A stretch of DNA of 64,000 bases. Origin: Rhodospirillales bacterium. Its GTDB lineage: Bacteria; Pseudomonadota; Alphaproteobacteria; ATCC43930; CGMCC-115725. The stretch is from positions 30,447 to 94,446 of the forward strand of contig JAQGIC010000072.1 in NCBI GenBank assembly GCA_028288725.1. Direction: 5' to 3'. Shown piece by piece: positions 178 through 4,055 of this stretch. The notes under the pieces were generated by a model. That model ran no database searches, was not told where the DNA came from, and worked only from the letters and a program-made list of their open reading frames with translations. The position numbers and the translations under genes are program-made. How positions within the stretch are numbered: position 1 is the stretch's first letter; each line of letters starts with the position of its first letter.

Positions 178-206
178 TTGACGCCACGCCCGCTGCACGC
201 TAGCAT
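178..206 (+). promoter_or_regulatory. Sigma-70-type promoter of the lactonase gene
   Basis: TTGACG at 178-183, a 17-base spacer, and TAGCAT at 201-206 match the usual alphaproteobacterial housekeeping promoter. The start of transcription would fall near base 213, inside the dyad operator that begins at 207. The leader before the ATG at 372 would be about 160 bases. The assignment rests on consensus match only. Confidence 0.55.
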
Positions 207-244
207 ATCCGGCATACCGGAGTTATGTCCGATATTTCGGACAC
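207..244 (+). promoter_or_regulatory. Duplicated dyad operator, copy 1
   Basis: Two 14-base dyads, TCCGGCATACCGGA at 208-221 and TCCGATATTTCGGA at 228-241, are separated by six bases. The block starts one base after the -10 box, so a bound repressor would block the promoter. Read in gene orientation it is identical at 31 of 38 positions to the block at 3654-3691 upstream of the oxidase gene. The GTATA-like core resembles sites of FadR-type GntR regulators, but no regulator gene lies nearby and the binding protein is unknown. Confidence 0.6.
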
Positions 245-371
245 CAAGGCCTGGCAGCATGTTCGCGAGCACATGACCCGCAAAGGGGCAGGGCCAACAT
301 CAAATCCGGTTTCGTCCGCATCTTCCCTGCGCAGAACCAAGGCCGAGAGGTCGACAGCGGAGGGATGGATC

Positions 372-1613
372 ATGACCAAGAACACTCGAAACGACTCGGT
401 GCTCAAAGGTTTCTCGCGTCGCGAACTGATCGCCGGCGCGGCGGCGGTGACGGCGGCGAGCCTGGCGCCGAAGACATTGTATGCGGCTGCGGCCGCACCG
501 CAGCTCTACGGCGGCGGCGTGCTGGCCTATGCCGGCTGTTATACGCCCAACGGCGGCGGCATCTACCTGTTCAACGTCAACCTCCGGACCGGGGGCCTGA
601 CACAGCTGAAACTGTTCGCCGGTATCGCCAACCCGTCCTGGATCAGTTTCGATCTCAGCCGCCGGTATCTTTATGCCGCCAACGAGATCGCCAATTTCAA
701 CGGGACGACCAGCGGCTCGGTCAGCGCCTTTCGCATCGATCGCCAGAATGGCGATCTGACGCCGCTGAATGCGGTGAGCTCCCAGGGGGCCTCGCCGGTC
801 CATCTCAACCCGCACCCGTCGGGTAAATTCCTGTTCGTCGCGAACTACGGCGGCGGCTCGATCGCGGTGCTGCCGATCCGGTCCGACGGCAGTCTGGGAG
901 CGGCGACCGACGTCAAGCTCGACAGCGGCAATATCGGGCCGACGACGCCGACCGGCGCGCCGCCGGGCAGTTTCGCCGACAGCGGCCATGATGCGCCCCA
1001 TGCCCACTTCATCCATAGCGATCCCTCGGGCCAGTTCGTGCTGCACGTCGATCTGGGACAGGACCGGATCTATTCCTGGCGCTTCAACGAGGCGGCCGGC
1101 ACCCTGTCGCCGGCCGCGGTGCCCTTCACCAGCCTGCCGCCCGGCGCCGGCCCGCGCCATCTGGCGTTTCATCCCAATGGCCGCCAGGTCTATGTCCTGA
1201 CCGAGGAAAGCTCGACCCTGTCCGCCTATGGCTATAACGGCCGCACGGGCGCCCTGACCCCGCTGCAGACCGTATCGGCGTTGCCGTCCGGCTTCGTCGG
1301 CACCAGCTATGGCTCGGAAGTCGGTCTGTCGGCCGATGGCCGCTTTCTCTATGCCGCCAACCGTCTCCACGACAGCATCGCCACGTTCGCCATCGACGCG
1401 GGCGGGGGCCTGACCCTGGTCGGCCATACCCAGACCGAAGGCGACTATCCGCGCAGCTTCGCGATCGACCCGACCGGCCATTTCTTCTACGCGACGAACC
1501 AGCGCAGCGACGCGATCACCATCTTCCGGCTCGACCCCGAGACCGGCAGGCCCGTGTTCACCGGTCAATATGTTCCGGTCGGCAGCCCGGCGCGGCTGGC
1601 CTTTCTGATCTAG
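372..1613 (+). CDS. Tat-exported lactonase, seven-bladed beta-propeller family
   Basis: The protein of 413 residues belongs to the lactonase beta-propeller family (6-phosphogluconolactonase/YbhE type), whose members open sugar lactones or are uncharacterised propellers. A twin-arginine signal (SRREL, Arg16-Arg17, then an Ala-rich stretch to about residue 38) predicts export to the periplasm, which argues against a cytoplasmic pentose-phosphate role. Propeller blades recur in the form 'SGKFLFVANY...GSIAVLPI'. I chose the ATG at 372 because a GGAGGG ribosome site precedes it and the Tat signal starts there. An in-frame ATG at 225 lies inside the operator and is unlikely. The gene converges on a flavoprotein oxidase gene with the same operator upstream, so its substrate may be the lactone made by that oxidase. 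That link is inference. Confidence 0.85.
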   Translation: MTKNTRNDSVLKGFSRRELIAGAAAVTAASLAPKTLYAAAAAPQLYGGGVLAYAGCYTPNGGGIYLFNVNLRTGGLTQLKLFAGIANPSWISFDLSRRYLYAANEIANFNGTTSGSVSAFRIDRQNGDLTPLNAVSSQGASPVHLNPHPSGKFLFVANYGGGSIAVLPIRSDGSLGAATDVKLDSGNIGPTTPTGAPPGSFADSGHDAPHAHFIHSDPSGQFVLHVDLGQDRIYSWRFNEAAGTLSPAAVPFTSLPPGAGPRHLAFHPNGRQVYVLTEESSTLSAYGYNGRTGALTPLQTVSALPSGFVGTSYGSEVGLSADGRFLYAANRLHDSIATFAIDAGGGLTLVGHTQTEGDYPRSFAIDPTGHFFYATNQRSDAITIFRLDPETGRPVFTGQYVPVGSPARLAFLI

Positions 1614-1726
1614 AGCCTGATCCGATCAAACCGGCTCGGTTTGATCGGTGAATCAGTCTCTAAATATATGATTTAGAGGGCGATTCAGACATGAGGTCGG
1701 TCCGACCTCATGTCATCGCGCTCTAG
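1611..1726. repeat. Compound palindromic intergenic element with three hairpins
   Basis: Three adjacent hairpins fill the gap between the two convergent genes. Stem 1 is CCGATCAAACCG (1622-1633) with its exact complement at 1637-1648. Stem 2 pairs 1649-1665 with 1671-1687 (three mismatches, inner CTCTAAAT exact). Stem 3 is GACATGAGGTCGG (1688-1700) with its exact complement at 1702-1714. The ends are TAGAGC and GCTCTA, also inverted. The layout resembles repeats that end in TAGAGC in other Alphaproteobacteria. It may also end transcription from both sides, though there is no T-run. Confidence 0.7.
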
Positions 1727-1765
1727 GACAAGGCGCGGGCGACCAAGTCGCCCGCGCTTCCCCCG

Positions 1766-3439
1766 TCAGGCCACCGGGATGGATTGGCTGTGATGGAAGC
1801 GGTTGTTCGGGTCCCAGGCGTGTTTGGCTTGGATCAGCCGGGGCAGGTTGCCGCCGTAATAAAGCCGAAGCGCCGTCGATGGCCCCGCTCGGTTGAGATC
1901 GACGTCCGGATAGTTCACGTAACAGCCGTCGACATTGTTGGTCGGGTCCCTGGCGGGATCGGGGATGCCGCCATAGGCGCCGTACATCTCGCCATAGAAG
2001 TCGCGGATCCAGGCGATGTGATTGTCGCCATTGGCGCTCGGGCCCTCGGTCTGGTCCTGCCAATAGGTCTGGTATTGCAGCTTGAAGATCGAGCTGCGCT
2101 GCCACACCGCCGTCGCCGTGGGCGCCACGGCATTGATCTGGCCGGCGTAGCTATCGACCTGAACCAGCGAGGCGGAAAGGTCGACCGCCTTGCCGGATCC
2201 GTCGGTGCGGGTCTGGGTCAGGTATTTGTAGATCGTCTGGATCTGGGCCGCCGGAAAGCCGGCGCGCATGTAGGCGGACTTGTACTTGCCTTTCTGATTG
2301 TCGCCGGAGCCGTTCAGGTCCTGCACGACTTCCCACCAGCGATAGTTGACATAGGCCTCGGAACTGGGCGCCGCGACCGGATGGCCGATGACCGCACCCC
2401 GGGGCGCCACGACGTTGGCGACGCCGTGTTTCGCCAGCAGGCCGTTCACCTGGGGCATGACCGTGCTCGATCCGATCGGGCCGTCGTAGTTGGCCTGGAC
2501 GATGATCTTCACCTGTCCGGCGCTAGCGTGGTTGAGCTTCAGCAGGCCGAAGATGCTGTTGCCGCCGTTCCGTGTCAGATCCTCGAAGAACGTGAGAATG
2601 CCGCCCAGATAGGAGGCGCCGCCGCCGGCGATGATGTCGGTCCAGTTCCAGGCCAGCACGATCAGTTCGGCGTTCTGCGGTGCTGTCGGCAGGGTCTGGA
2701 ATTCATAGCGGGTGATGATGCCGAAATTGCCGCCGCCGCCGCCGGTATGTGCCCAATAGAGCAGCTGATCATTGGGATCGGTCGATTTATTCGTGACCTG
2801 ATTGAGCTGGACCTTGTCGCCCTGGCCGACGGTCGCGACCGTCACCCCGGTCAGCCAGTCGACCGTCAGGCCGAAGGCGCGGGACATCAGCCCGTAGCCG
2901 CCGCCGCAGATATGGCCGCCGAGGCCGACCGAGTAGCAGGAGCCGGCCGGCAGGGTCTTGCCGAATTGCCAGTAGAGGTGCCGATAGAGATCCCAGGTCG
3001 TCCCGCCGGCCTGAGCGAAATAGCAGCCGCGGGCCTGGTCATAGCCGATGGCATTCAGCAGGCTGACGTCGATGATCGCCCGCGTGTCGGCGTTGAAGAC
3101 GAAATCCTCGTAGCAATGCCCGCCGCCGCGCACGCGGAAGTTCTGCGCCCAGCCGCCGCCGATCACATTGGCGAGCGCTTCGGCCGCGCCATGTTCGGTC
3201 AAAGGCACGAAGACGACCGCGGCATTGGGCGCGGTCCAGCGGCGGTTGAACCCCTGGGTGAGGCCGCGGAACTGCGGGCTCGACGGGTTGAGGATCAAGA
3301 GATCCGTCCCGGCCGAGCCGCCTGCCGCCGCGACGAGTTCGGCCTTGGCCTGTGCCTGCGACTTGCCGCTGAGGGCCAGCAGCCCGGCCATGGTGCCGGC
3401 GCCCGCAGCACCGGCTTTCAGGAAATGACGTCGTTCCAT
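1766..3439 (-). CDS. Tat-exported FAD-linked oxidase, berberine-bridge type, with bicovalent FAD
   Basis: The 557-residue protein has a Tat signal (RRHFLKAG near the N-terminus, Ala-rich to about residue 33), a PCMH-type FAD domain and a C-terminal BBE domain (pattern YxNYxDxDL, then DPNNRFHHSQSIP). Both covalent FAD anchors are visible: His108 in RGGGHCYED and Cys168 in AGSCYSVGLGGH. They are 60 residues apart, as in gluco-oligosaccharide oxidase. Such enzymes oxidise sugars at the anomeric carbon to lactones, or alkaloids and alcohols, and reduce oxygen to hydrogen peroxide. The ATG at 3439 follows an AGGAGGAAACAAG ribosome site; a longer frame exists but lacks one. The same 38-base operator as for the convergent lactonase gene lies about 220 bases upstream. 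The substrate is not known from sequence. Confidence 0.88.
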   Translation of the reverse strand: MERRHFLKAGAAGAGTMAGLLALSGKSQAQAKAELVAAAGGSAGTDLLILNPSSPQFRGLTQGFNRRWTAPNAAVVFVPLTEHGAAEALANVIGGGWAQNFRVRGGGHCYEDFVFNADTRAIIDVSLLNAIGYDQARGCYFAQAGGTTWDLYRHLYWQFGKTLPAGSCYSVGLGGHICGGGYGLMSRAFGLTVDWLTGVTVATVGQGDKVQLNQVTNKSTDPNDQLLYWAHTGGGGGNFGIITRYEFQTLPTAPQNAELIVLAWNWTDIIAGGGASYLGGILTFFEDLTRNGGNSIFGLLKLNHASAGQVKIIVQANYDGPIGSSTVMPQVNGLLAKHGVANVVAPRGAVIGHPVAAPSSEAYVNYRWWEVVQDLNGSGDNQKGKYKSAYMRAGFPAAQIQTIYKYLTQTRTDGSGKAVDLSASLVQVDSYAGQINAVAPTATAVWQRSSIFKLQYQTYWQDQTEGPSANGDNHIAWIRDFYGEMYGAYGGIPDPARDPTNNVDGCYVNYPDVDLNRAGPSTALRLYYGGNLPRLIQAKHAWDPNNRFHHSQSIPVA

Positions 3440-3653
3440 CTTGTTTCCTCCTGTGACGAAGCCTCCTTTCCGCACCCTCTAGAGCTGCGGATGTCCGAAC
3501 GTTCCAGGCAAGCGGGTTCGACAACCCTAGAGAGATTTCTCTCGATTGGTGGGAAGCGATAAATGCAAGACCGGGCCCTCGGCGCGGGTCATTGCATCGG
3601 ATAGATTCGGACGATCGGCCAAACGCTATCGGTTCGGCCAAAGCAACGACCGT

Positions 3654-3691
3654 GTGTCCGGTATATCGGACTTAAATCCTGTATAGCGGAT
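3654..3691 (-). promoter_or_regulatory. Duplicated dyad operator, copy 2
   Basis: TCCGGTATATCGGA (3657-3670) and the weaker TCCTGTATAGCGGA (3677-3690) repeat with the same 20-base period as copy 1. On the minus strand the 38-base block matches copy 1 at 31 positions. A convincing -35/-10 pair is not visible here, although TATACA inside the block could be a -10 box. A 9-base direct repeat, TCGGCCAAA, occurs downstream in the leader at 3615 and 3634. Confidence 0.55.
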
Positions 3692-3751
3692 GACAGAGAG
3701 GTTAAGCGCGACACCTGAAGGTTGCAACAACTTTTGGCGGTCGACCGTCTA

Positions 3752-4055
3752 TCCCGCTTTACGCCGTTCCGCGCGCGCACGCGTTGTGGGTGCGACGATC
3801 AGCAGGGCATCGTCGCCGCGACTACATCGCCGCCCATTTCAAGGACAAGAGGGTCGCGGTCCTGAATGACAAGAGTTCCCACGGCCCGGGGCTGGCCCAG
3901 GAGACGCAGAAGCGTTTGAAGGCGCTGGGCATCGAGCCGGCAAGGCCGATACCGTGCTGGGCACCATAGGCTTCGCCGCCAAGGGCGATGTGACCGCACG
4001 CGGCTATGTCGTTTATCGTTGGCACGCCGGCAACTACGACTACGCGGTGGATTGA
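3752..4055 (+). pseudogene. Remnant of a LivK-type branched-chain amino-acid binding-protein gene
   Basis: Pieces of one family sit in three frames. The first reads TRCGCDDQQGIVAA (codons ending near 3820), matching the conserved CGRDDQQG segment of Leu/Ile/Val-binding proteins. A frameshift near 3820 leads into DYIAAHFKDKRVAVLNDKS and GLAQETQKRLKALGIEP (to about 3941). A second break jumps to a C-terminal piece (3942-4055) reading KADTVLGTIGFAAKGDVT and ending in a Trp-His-Ala-Gly-Asn-Tyr tail with a stop. Roughly 100 or more residues are missing between the last two pieces, and the N-terminal half is absent. No product is expected. The decayed tail overlaps the end of the VOC gene on the other strand. 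Confidence 0.8.

What the first reader, a model, noticed from the sequence alone, without database searches (positions are those of the whole stretch)
207..3691. Convergent Tat-exported oxidase and lactonase genes share a duplicated 38-base operator
The block at 207-244 before the lactonase gene and the block at 3654-3691 before the oxidase gene match at 31 of 38 positions when both are read in gene direction. Each holds two 14-base dyads of the form TCCG-N6-CGGA with starts 20 bases apart; the dyad at 3677-3690 is degenerate. The coding parts between them are unrelated, so the similarity is not from a recent gene duplication. The shared site suggests one regulator for both genes. It does not match a regulator I can name; the GTATA core recalls FadR-type GntR proteins.
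Basis: partly seen in the sequence, partly recalled or inferred. Interest (0 to 1): 0.78.

Follow-up and report, generated by a model that had tools for sequence, protein, structure and literature searches.

The report
Shared switch for amino-sugar oxidation genes
Two bacterial genes, one for an enzyme predicted to oxidise amino sugars such as N-acetylglucosamine and one predicted to open the lactone that results, carry the same duplicated control site as a distant regulator gene of the IclR family, so one switch likely runs a whole breakdown pathway that would give this kind of oxidase, whose role in the cell has been reported as unclear, a job.

Summary
The regulator guess is wrong: the site is a tandem IclR-family operator, not FadR/GntR-type. 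A refined pattern found a third copy in the genome, 47 bases before an iclR-family gene on another contig. The sister species, Aliidongia dinghuensis, keeps all three. Of 75 related IclR loci from other genera, 57 carry the site upstream. A profile built only from such foreign sites, scanned over this genome, rings at three places: iclR, oxidase, lactonase. The oxidase is 45% identical to R. solanacearum N-acetylhexosamine oxidase and keeps all 14 active-site residues named in the passages read. The IclR-linked operon encodes peptide-type transport, a D-aminoacylase-like deacylase, RidA and a D-serine-dehydratase-like enzyme, in outline a known pathway for oxidised N-acetylglucosamine. Likely function: repression of periplasmic amino-sugar oxidation plus uptake and breakdown of the acid. 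Weak point: the deacylase keeps one specificity residue of the known GlcNAc-acid deacetylase (Ser292) but not others (Lys254, Glu226), so the cytoplasmic half is tentative. No binding or expression was tested.

The parts
208..241 (.). Operator upstream of the lactonase gene: two dyads (208-221, 228-241), 20 bases apart; 18-base IclR-type dyad TGTCCGATATTTCGGACA at 226-243; ends 130 nt before the start codon
   Evidence: foreign-trained profile, E 4e-5; 18 of 18 to the published NGT-12-ACN consensus; the other dyad scores only 13 of 18
3657..3690 (.). Operator upstream of the oxidase gene: dyads 3657-3670 and 3677-3690 (the latter degenerate); 18-base IclR-type dyad at 3655-3672; 217 nt before the start codon
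   Evidence: E 1.7e-5; 17 of 18; the other dyad 13 of 18
178..206 (+). Likely sigma-70 promoter of the lactonase gene: TTGACG, 17 bases, TAGCAT; start point predicted inside the operator
   Evidence: 1 found, 1.0 expected by chance; the GATTGACG block and the spacing to the second hexamer are kept in the sister species
372..1613 (+). Tat-type 7-bladed lactonase, 413 aa; closest solved relative periplasmic gluconolactonase PpgL
   Evidence: PF10282 367.5 bits; PDB 6igb 4.4e-53
1766..3439 (-). Tat-type FAD oxidase, 557 aa; predicted N-acetylhexosamine oxidase with bicovalent FAD (His108, Cys168)
   Evidence: PF01565 + PF08031; TIGR01409; PDB 7zzk 7.3e-103; 14 of 14 named active-site residues conserved
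3699..3727 (-). Possible weak promoter of the oxidase gene (TTGCAA, 17 bases, TAACCT), read by eye; ends just before the operator
   Evidence: TGTTGCAACC block identical in the sister species; NOT reported by the promoter scan

Best explanation
The repeated block in front of the oxidase and lactonase genes is a tandem two-dyad operator of the IclR-family type that also stands in front of an iclR-family gene on another contig, and that IclR protein likely binds it as two dimers on one face of the DNA and represses all three promoters until an inducer, probably an intermediate of amino-sugar-acid breakdown, releases it. Shown by sequence: the three operators in this genome and in the sister species, their presence upstream of related IclR genes in other alphaproteobacteria, their near absence elsewhere in the genome, and conservation in the oxidase of the 14 NagOx active-site residues named in the passages read. 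Inferred: in the periplasm the oxidase turns N-acetylglucosamine or N-acetylgalactosamine into its 1,5-lactone (with H2O2) and the lactonase opens it to N-acetyl-D-hexosaminate, which is an N-acetyl D-amino acid. The peptide-type ABC transporter divergent from iclR would import it, the D-aminoacylase-like enzyme would deacetylate it, and the D-serine-dehydratase-like PLP enzyme, helped by RidA, would turn the aminosugar acid into a 2-keto-3-deoxy acid and ammonia. My rough step estimates: operator bound by this IclR 0.9; repression rather than activation 0.75; oxidase acts on N-acetylhexosamines 0.75; the operon breaks down the resulting acid 0.5.
For: Third operator 47 nt before iclR and 50 nt before the divergent binding-protein gene; reversed-pattern control 0. 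Sister species keeps the operator before the oxidase, lactonase and iclR genes and the operon at 85-94% identity for eight transporter and enzyme genes. 57 of 75 foreign IclR loci have the tandem site within 400 bp upstream of the matched segment; 12 of the other 18 have a site with 3-6 mismatches elsewhere in the locus. Profile from 55 foreign sites finds iclR, oxidase and lactonase and no other place at E <= 10 in this genome, 150 of 298 first-look candidates being scored. Published IclR class NGTYCRAW4TYGRACN with tandem centres 18-22 nt apart fits the stronger dyad at 18 (lactonase), 17 (oxidase) and 16 (iclR) of 18. One IclR of this subfamily in the genome at E <= 1e-20. Operator overlaps the predicted lactonase start point. 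Oxidase: 215 of 482 aligned residues identical to NagOx, 14 of 14 named active-site residues including Leu251, which makes room for the N-acetyl group. Lactonase closest to periplasmic gluconolactonase. Operon enzymes: amidohydrolase, RidA, Ala_racemase_N + D-ser_dehydrat, the same three enzyme kinds as OngB, OngD and OngC. The deacylase has Ser at OngB's Ser292, which is Thr in the D-aminoacylases.
Against: The deacylase lacks other OngB pocket residues: Lys254, said to be conserved in OngB-like enzymes and D-aminoacylases alike, is Gln (in both species), Glu226 is Tyr and Ser290 is Gly; Gln298 lay outside the printed alignment and would be Leu if no gap intervenes. Over its whole length it scores better against D-aminoacylases than against PpOngB. 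The weaker dyad of each window operator scores only 13 of 18 against the IclR consensus. In other genera the same IclR subfamily stands beside different transporters, so its ligand there may be unrelated. The oxidase was found only in this genus among 385 genomes of the class at E <= 1e-80, so operator plus oxidase could not be tested more widely. The oxidase promoter was not found by the scan. nagA is present in both species, so a standard route for N-acetylglucosamine may also exist.
Confidence: 0.62

Rival explanations
1. Same IclR operator and regulator, but the regulon serves scavenging of cell-wall debris: the operon takes up and deacylates D-amino-acid peptides or N-acyl D-amino acids, while the oxidase and lactonase act independently on free N-acetylglucosamine from the same debris.
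For: Whole deacylase closest to N-acyl-D-glutamate deacylase and D-aminoacylase; dipeptide-type transporter genes on both sides of iclR; in Aureimonas-type loci the same IclR subfamily sits with ABC genes, RidA and mostly a D-serine-dehydratase-like gene, and tblastn found no oxidase relative in any of the loci; OngB's Lys254 and Glu226 not kept.
Against: Lys254 is said to be kept in D-aminoacylases too, so its loss speaks against both substrates; the deacylase has Ser, not the D-aminoacylase Thr, at position 292. The oxidase-lactonase product is itself an N-acetyl D-amino acid, so one pathway explains all parts more simply.
Confidence: 0.22
2. Same operator and regulator, but the oxidase is there to make hydrogen peroxide against competitors or for peroxidases, with the lactonase removing lactone; the link to the operon is only a shared signal.
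For: The authors who found HexNAcO name peroxide production as a possible role, and note regulation by exopolysaccharide and quorum sensing that might point to biofilm (PMC9299179 section 10); the oxidase has a Tat signal.
Against: Co-regulation with a deacylase, RidA and a PLP dehydratase is not expected for a peroxide weapon; the three sites found lie before iclR and its divergent operon, the oxidase and the lactonase only.
Confidence: 0.1
3. The site is an operator for a FadR/GntR regulator.
Against: The site sits before iclR-family genes here, in the sister species and in 57 of 75 foreign IclR loci, and its stronger dyad fits the published IclR consensus.
Confidence: 0.02
4. The similarity of the two upstream regions is chance or a recent local duplication without function.
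For: Single dyads are as common as chance.
Against: 0 of 1000 shuffles reach 31 of 38; both sites kept in the sister species; foreign-trained profile finds both at E 1.7e-5 and 4e-5.
Confidence: 0.01

Closest known systems
Tandem IclR-family operators of the NGT-12-ACN class (Suvorova and Gelfand 2021, PMC8222616; abstract and part 1 of 2 of Results read)
   Same: Consensus NGTYCRAW4TYGRACN met at 18 and 17 of 18 by the stronger dyad of each window operator; two palindromes with centres 20 nt apart, inside the published 18-22 nt; sugar and sugar-acid genes are frequent in this class
   Different: The other dyad of each operator scores 13 of 18. Whether this orthologous group is one of their 181 could not be checked (supplements were not available)
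BlcR, TtgV and PcaR-type IclR regulators with solved structures
   Same: Among the best PDB relatives of the IclR protein: 8eju 1.5e-14, 3mq0 (repressor of blcABC) 1.8e-13, 2xrn TtgV 3e-10. That IclR proteins can bind as tetramers is stated in PMC8222616; that BlcR controls a lactonase operon is recalled
   Different: Distant (57 bits or less); their operators and targets were not compared here
N-acetyl-D-hexosamine oxidase NagOx / HexNAcO, R. solanacearum (PMC9850908: abstract and passages; PMC9299179: passages and section 10)
   Same: 45% identity over 482 aligned residues; all 14 named active-site residues incl. bicovalent His/Cys and Leu251; the known enzyme makes the C1 lactone
   Different: The disulfide Cys291-Cys316 of NagOx is absent. 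Here the oxidase is paired with a lactonase under one operator; in R. solanacearum its function is reported as unclear
Ong pathway for oxidised N-acetylglucosamine, Pseudoalteromonas (Jiang 2022, PMC9537276: passages and section 13; OngB structure PMC12017989: passages and sections 7 and 10)
   Same: D-aminoacylase-like deacylase, D-amino-acid-deaminase-like PLP enzyme and RidA under one local regulator; Ser at OngB position 292
   Different: There the oxidised sugar comes from chitin cut by an LPMO, the importer is of the SSS family and the repressor is MurR/RpiR; here an oxidase and lactonase would make it, the importer is an ABC transporter, the regulator is IclR, and OngB's Lys254, Glu226 and Ser290 are not kept
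Periplasmic gluconolactonase PpgL (PDB 6igb)
   Same: Best solved relative of the lactonase (4.4e-53)
   Different: Substrate untested; signal peptides were not compared

Membership tests
IclR-family transcription factor (gene at G000:C72:9895-10674) | IclR helix-turn-helix domain and IclR C-terminal domain | tested here: met
   PF09339 49.8 bits (cut-off 22) and PF01614 68.9 bits (cut-off 24)
IclR tandem operator, NGT-12-ACN class | Palindrome NGTYCRAW4TYGRACN | tested here: met
   Stronger dyad 18 of 18 (lactonase), 17 (oxidase), 16 (iclR); weaker dyad only 13 of 18 in both window sites
IclR tandem operator, NGT-12-ACN class | Two palindromes with centres 18-22 nt apart | tested here: met
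   20 nt
IclR tandem operator, NGT-12-ACN class | Site conserved upstream of related IclR genes | tested here: met
   57 of 75 loci within 400 bp upstream of the matched segment; 12 more elsewhere in the locus with 3-6 mismatches; 6 with neither (best 7-10 mismatches)
IclR tandem operator, NGT-12-ACN class | Binding by the IclR protein | not testable with these tools
   needs purified protein
FadR/GntR operator | Site associated with a GntR-family regulator gene | tested here: not met
   Third genomic copy lies before an iclR gene; profile rings at iclR, oxidase and lactonase only
N-acetyl-D-hexosamine oxidase (EC 1.1.3.29) | Bicovalent FAD via His and Cys | tested here: met
   His64 and Cys123 of NagOx align with His108 and Cys168; the linkage itself is not testable
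N-acetyl-D-hexosamine oxidase (EC 1.1.3.29) | Active-site residues and Leu251 pocket | tested here: met
   14 of 14 residues named in the passages read are identical
N-acetyl-D-hexosamine oxidase (EC 1.1.3.29) | Activity on GlcNAc or GalNAc | not testable with these tools
   enzyme assay needed
Ong pathway / GlcNAc1A deacetylase OngB | Ser292 in the substrate pocket (Thr in D-aminoacylases) | tested here: met
   Ser in the direct alignment to PpOngB; an alignment to BbDam with one gap would put Thr there
Ong pathway / GlcNAc1A deacetylase OngB | Gln298 in the substrate pocket | tested here: inconclusive
   Outside the printed OngB alignment; Leu if no gap intervenes, Thr by the gapped BbDam alignment; never Gln
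Ong pathway / GlcNAc1A deacetylase OngB | Lys254, Glu226 and Ser290 | tested here: not met
   Gln, Tyr and Gly in the alignment to PpOngB
Ong pathway | Fold-type III PLP D-amino-acid deaminase plus RidA | tested here: met
   PF01168 + PF14031, PF01042; substrate untested
Ong pathway | MurR/RpiR repressor and SSS importer | tested here: not met
   IclR regulator and ABC transporter in the operon instead; other contigs were not searched for them
BhcR (beta-hydroxyaspartate cycle regulator) | NCBIfam NF045644 over its cut-off | tested here: not met
   65.6 bits against 350
PF10282 lactonase | Pfam model over its cut-off | tested here: met
   367.5 bits against 21.7

The most novel reading that the evidence does not exclude
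An undescribed route of amino-sugar catabolism: N-acetylhexosamines are oxidised to lactones and hydrolysed in the periplasm, and the N-acetyl-hexosaminates enter a cytoplasmic D-amino-acid-like pathway to 2-keto-3-deoxygluconate, all under one IclR repressor that acquired the oxidase-lactonase pair in this genus. This would give N-acetylhexosamine oxidase its first physiological pathway.
Probability: 0.4. Interest if true: 0.82.

Novelty: new variant of a known kind. Interest (0 to 1): 0.62.

Why it matters
The biological function of the R. solanacearum N-acetylhexosamine oxidase is stated in print to be unclear (PMC9299179). The shared operator ties such an enzyme to a lactonase and to an operon with the enzyme types needed to use its product, so the question becomes testable with one deletion strain and a few enzyme assays. 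It also shows a transcription factor that elsewhere seems to hold one local site extending its control to an unlinked pair of exported enzymes: 11 of 12 foreign genomes scanned had a match, each at a single place, against three places here and four in the sister species.

Tried and rejected
FadR/GntR as regulator: rejected, see rivals. Single dyads as a regulon marker: rejected, 140 hits at up to 2 mismatches against 240 for the reversed control. First genome-contig scan with a two-sequence IclR alignment (A1) confirmed no relative; the second scan, allowed because the first found nothing, used an 18-sequence alignment and gave 76 loci. L101, a fragment with 138 bases of match, was left out, so 75 of 76 were examined. 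The 8-mismatch limit was chosen after seeing the values; control windows elsewhere in the loci mostly had best values of 8-11. Lower control values mark sites elsewhere in the locus; two loci with an accepted site (L083, L096) also had a control value of 5. The 55 training sites are redundant: 22 fall in one cluster at 85% identity. The foreign genomes contain training sites, so their one match each is by construction; the result there is the absence of further places, with 125-150 of 125-590 first-look candidates scored, and one genome (G786) gave none. Class-wide profile scan: 2 of 385 genomes at E <= 1e-4, both of this genus, but with stricter filters that lose weak matches. Oxidase in the phylum: 3 of 398 genomes at E <= 1e-60, the own one and two at 40%. 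nagB (TIGR00502) 0 of 2, nagA 2 of 2 over the cut-off; nagB decides nothing because other enzymes of that step were not sought. Deacylase in the class: 7 of 385 at E <= 1e-100; the five outside the genus are 39-42% identical, and my tblastn found no RidA, dehydratase or permease relative in the 4.6 kb held for each. I first read OngB's Ser292 as Thr here, from the gapped BbDam alignment; the direct alignment to PpOngB shows Ser, and I raised the estimate for the operon step from 0.45 to 0.5 for that. Paper searches listed no paper whose title or abstract start describes this regulon; apart from the five papers opened only the listings were seen (for example 15 of 23), and only an open-licence library was searched.


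Full report
What was checked. The two blocks are as described: 31 of 38 positions identical in gene direction, two dyads per block, 20 bases apart. In 1000 dinucleotide-preserving shuffles of the two upstream regions the best match was 27. Single dyads are at chance level in the window (3 found, 4.5 expected) and in the genome (140 against 240 for the reversed pattern at up to 2 mismatches). The pair is what is special: with up to 3 mismatches in 16 fixed bases the genome gives 102 places against 65 for the reversed control, but only the two window sites have 0 or 1 mismatch.

The third site names the regulator. With the ATA core added to the pattern, a third tandem site appeared in the same genome at contig C72, 9814-9847 (3 mismatches of 24), with zero hits for the reversed control. 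It lies between an iclR-family gene (starts 9895) and a divergent gene for a peptide-type solute-binding protein (start taken as 9763), 47 and 50 nt from each. Pfam puts the regulator in the IclR family with both domains over their cut-offs. It is the only match of its kind in the genome at E <= 1e-20.

Sister species. G001, the only same-genus genome among the relatives drawn, has an IclR protein letter-identical to one recorded as Aliidongia dinghuensis, on a contig of the same length. The window is therefore from an Aliidongia-type genome (inference). G001 keeps the operator before the oxidase (4 mismatches of 24), the lactonase (3) and iclR (4), with the oxidase and lactonase again convergent. 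Of 146 genomes searched, own included, only these two have the tandem pattern at up to 3 mismatches. Of 61 genomes searched for the regulator, own included, 4 matched at E <= 1e-20: these two (100% and 89%) and two others at 27-30%.

Foreign IclR genes carry the same operator. A scan of named genomes gave 76 loci; the IclR proteins of the 75 examined are 38-55% identical to this one. Of the 75, 57 have the tandem site within 400 bp upstream of the matched segment at 8 or fewer mismatches of 24; 12 of the other 18 have a site with 3-6 mismatches elsewhere in the locus, 11 of these about 3.5 kb before iclR and one about 5 kb; the last 6 have 7-10 at best. The consensus is TTTGTCCGATATnTCAGACA-N4-GnCTGTATATCGGACAAA. 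Suvorova and Gelfand (2021) describe an IclR operator class NGTYCRAW4TYGRACN and tandem sites with centres 18-22 nt apart. The stronger dyad fits at 18 (lactonase), 17 (oxidase) and 16 (iclR) of 18, and in the whole 64 kb window only the two operator places reach 17; the weaker dyad of each window site reaches 13.

Independent test. A sequence profile was built from 55 foreign sites, none from this genus, and scanned over both genomes (150 of 298 and 150 of 300 first-look candidates scored). In this genome it gives three places and no other at E <= 10: iclR (1.7e-6), oxidase (1.7e-5), lactonase (4.0e-5). In the sister species it gives iclR (7.5e-7), lactonase (3.7e-6), an amino-acid-type ABC operon (8.1e-6) and the oxidase (2.4e-4); one further place has E 1.3. 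In 12 foreign genomes, which hold training sites, 11 have a match at E <= 0.01, each at a single place; by the coordinates each place is a site beside an IclR gene of the set. The regulon thus looks wider in this genus than in the others scanned. In 385 genomes of the class, 2 matched at E <= 1e-4, with stricter filters.

Promoter geometry. The lactonase has a promoter-like TTGACG-17-TAGCAT at 178-206 (one found, one expected by chance), whose first hexamer and spacing are kept in the sister species. The start point would fall inside the operator, which suggests repression (inference). The oxidase has a conserved TGTTGCAACC block at a similar distance, but the promoter scan did not report it.

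The enzymes. The oxidase's best solved relative is the R. solanacearum N-acetyl-D-hexosamine oxidase, 7zzk (348 bits; next 253). Of 482 aligned residues 215 are identical, and all 14 residues named for its active site in the passages read are kept: the bicovalent His and Cys, six Tyr, Ser122, Gln381, Asp383, Gln410, Gln412 and Leu251, the residue that accommodates the N-acetyl group; the NagOx disulfide is not kept. That enzyme makes the C1 lactone of GlcNAc, and its role in the cell is stated to be unclear. The lactonase is closest to periplasmic gluconolactonase PpgL. The pair would turn N-acetylhexosamine into N-acetyl-hexosaminate in the periplasm (inference).

The linked operon. Divergent from iclR run an ABC-type peptide binding protein, two permeases, a D-aminoacylase-like amidohydrolase, RidA, a D-serine-dehydratase-like PLP protein and two ATPases; order and sequence are kept in the sister species. 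Deacylase, RidA and PLP deaminase are the same three kinds as OngB, OngD and OngC; in Pseudoalteromonas OngB and OngC turn N-acetylglucosaminate into 2-keto-3-deoxygluconate, and the ongD gene is needed for growth on it. N-acetylglucosaminate is chemically an N-acetyl D-amino acid with a beta-hydroxyl group, the class on which such enzymes act (established chemistry, recalled). This is the reason for the proposed pathway.

For and against in the deacylase. In the direct alignment to PpOngB the residue at Ser292, which is Thr in D-aminoacylases, is Ser here; but Lys254 is Gln, Glu226 is Tyr and Ser290 is Gly, and Gln298 lay beyond the printed alignment (Leu if no gap intervenes). Gln at the Lys254 position is the same in both species. 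In this stretch BbDam scores best (50.7 bits), then PpOngB (36.6), then AfDam (31.5); over the whole protein both D-aminoacylases score above PpOngB. Its substrate is open. In other genera the IclR subfamily accompanies other transporters. The standard gene nagA is present in both species.

Verdict. The shared operator and its assignment to an IclR regulator are close to settled at the level of sequence. The oxidase assignment is strong. The joined pathway is the best single explanation but rests on enzyme kind rather than on tested specificity. No experiment was done.

Noticed in passing
window 3755-4052: Decayed gene for an amino-acid-type binding protein (label by eye): three pieces at 62-85% identity in three frames, with large parts missing, upstream of the oxidase operator; the sister species has an open frame of 366 codons (L021 4659-5759).
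   Followed up: partly
L117 6459-6499 (G001:C23:42458-42498): Fourth operator in the sister species, before an amino-acid-type ABC transporter operon (label by eye); a similar-looking operon lies beside iclR in Microvirga (L099). The profile found no such site in the window's genome.
   Followed up: partly
L069, L073, L074, L076, L077, L079, L080, L088, L091, L092, L095 (around 2400-2500): In one group of the IclR subfamily the operator lies about 3.5 kb before iclR; tblastn shows a RidA relative in all 11 and a D-serine-dehydratase-like relative in 9, suggesting an older link of this IclR group to D-amino acids.
   Followed up: partly
L051 about 11434, L064 about 11964: Mesorhizobium loci of the IclR subfamily with a relative (33-35%) of the window's lactonase about 5 kb away.
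   Followed up: no
L118, L119 (G681, G703): Oxidase relatives at 40% identity in another class of the phylum, each with one in-frame TGA inside the match.
   Followed up: no
window 1614-1735: Several inverted repeats between the convergent lactonase and oxidase stop codons, seen by eye; possibly a two-way terminator.
   Followed up: no
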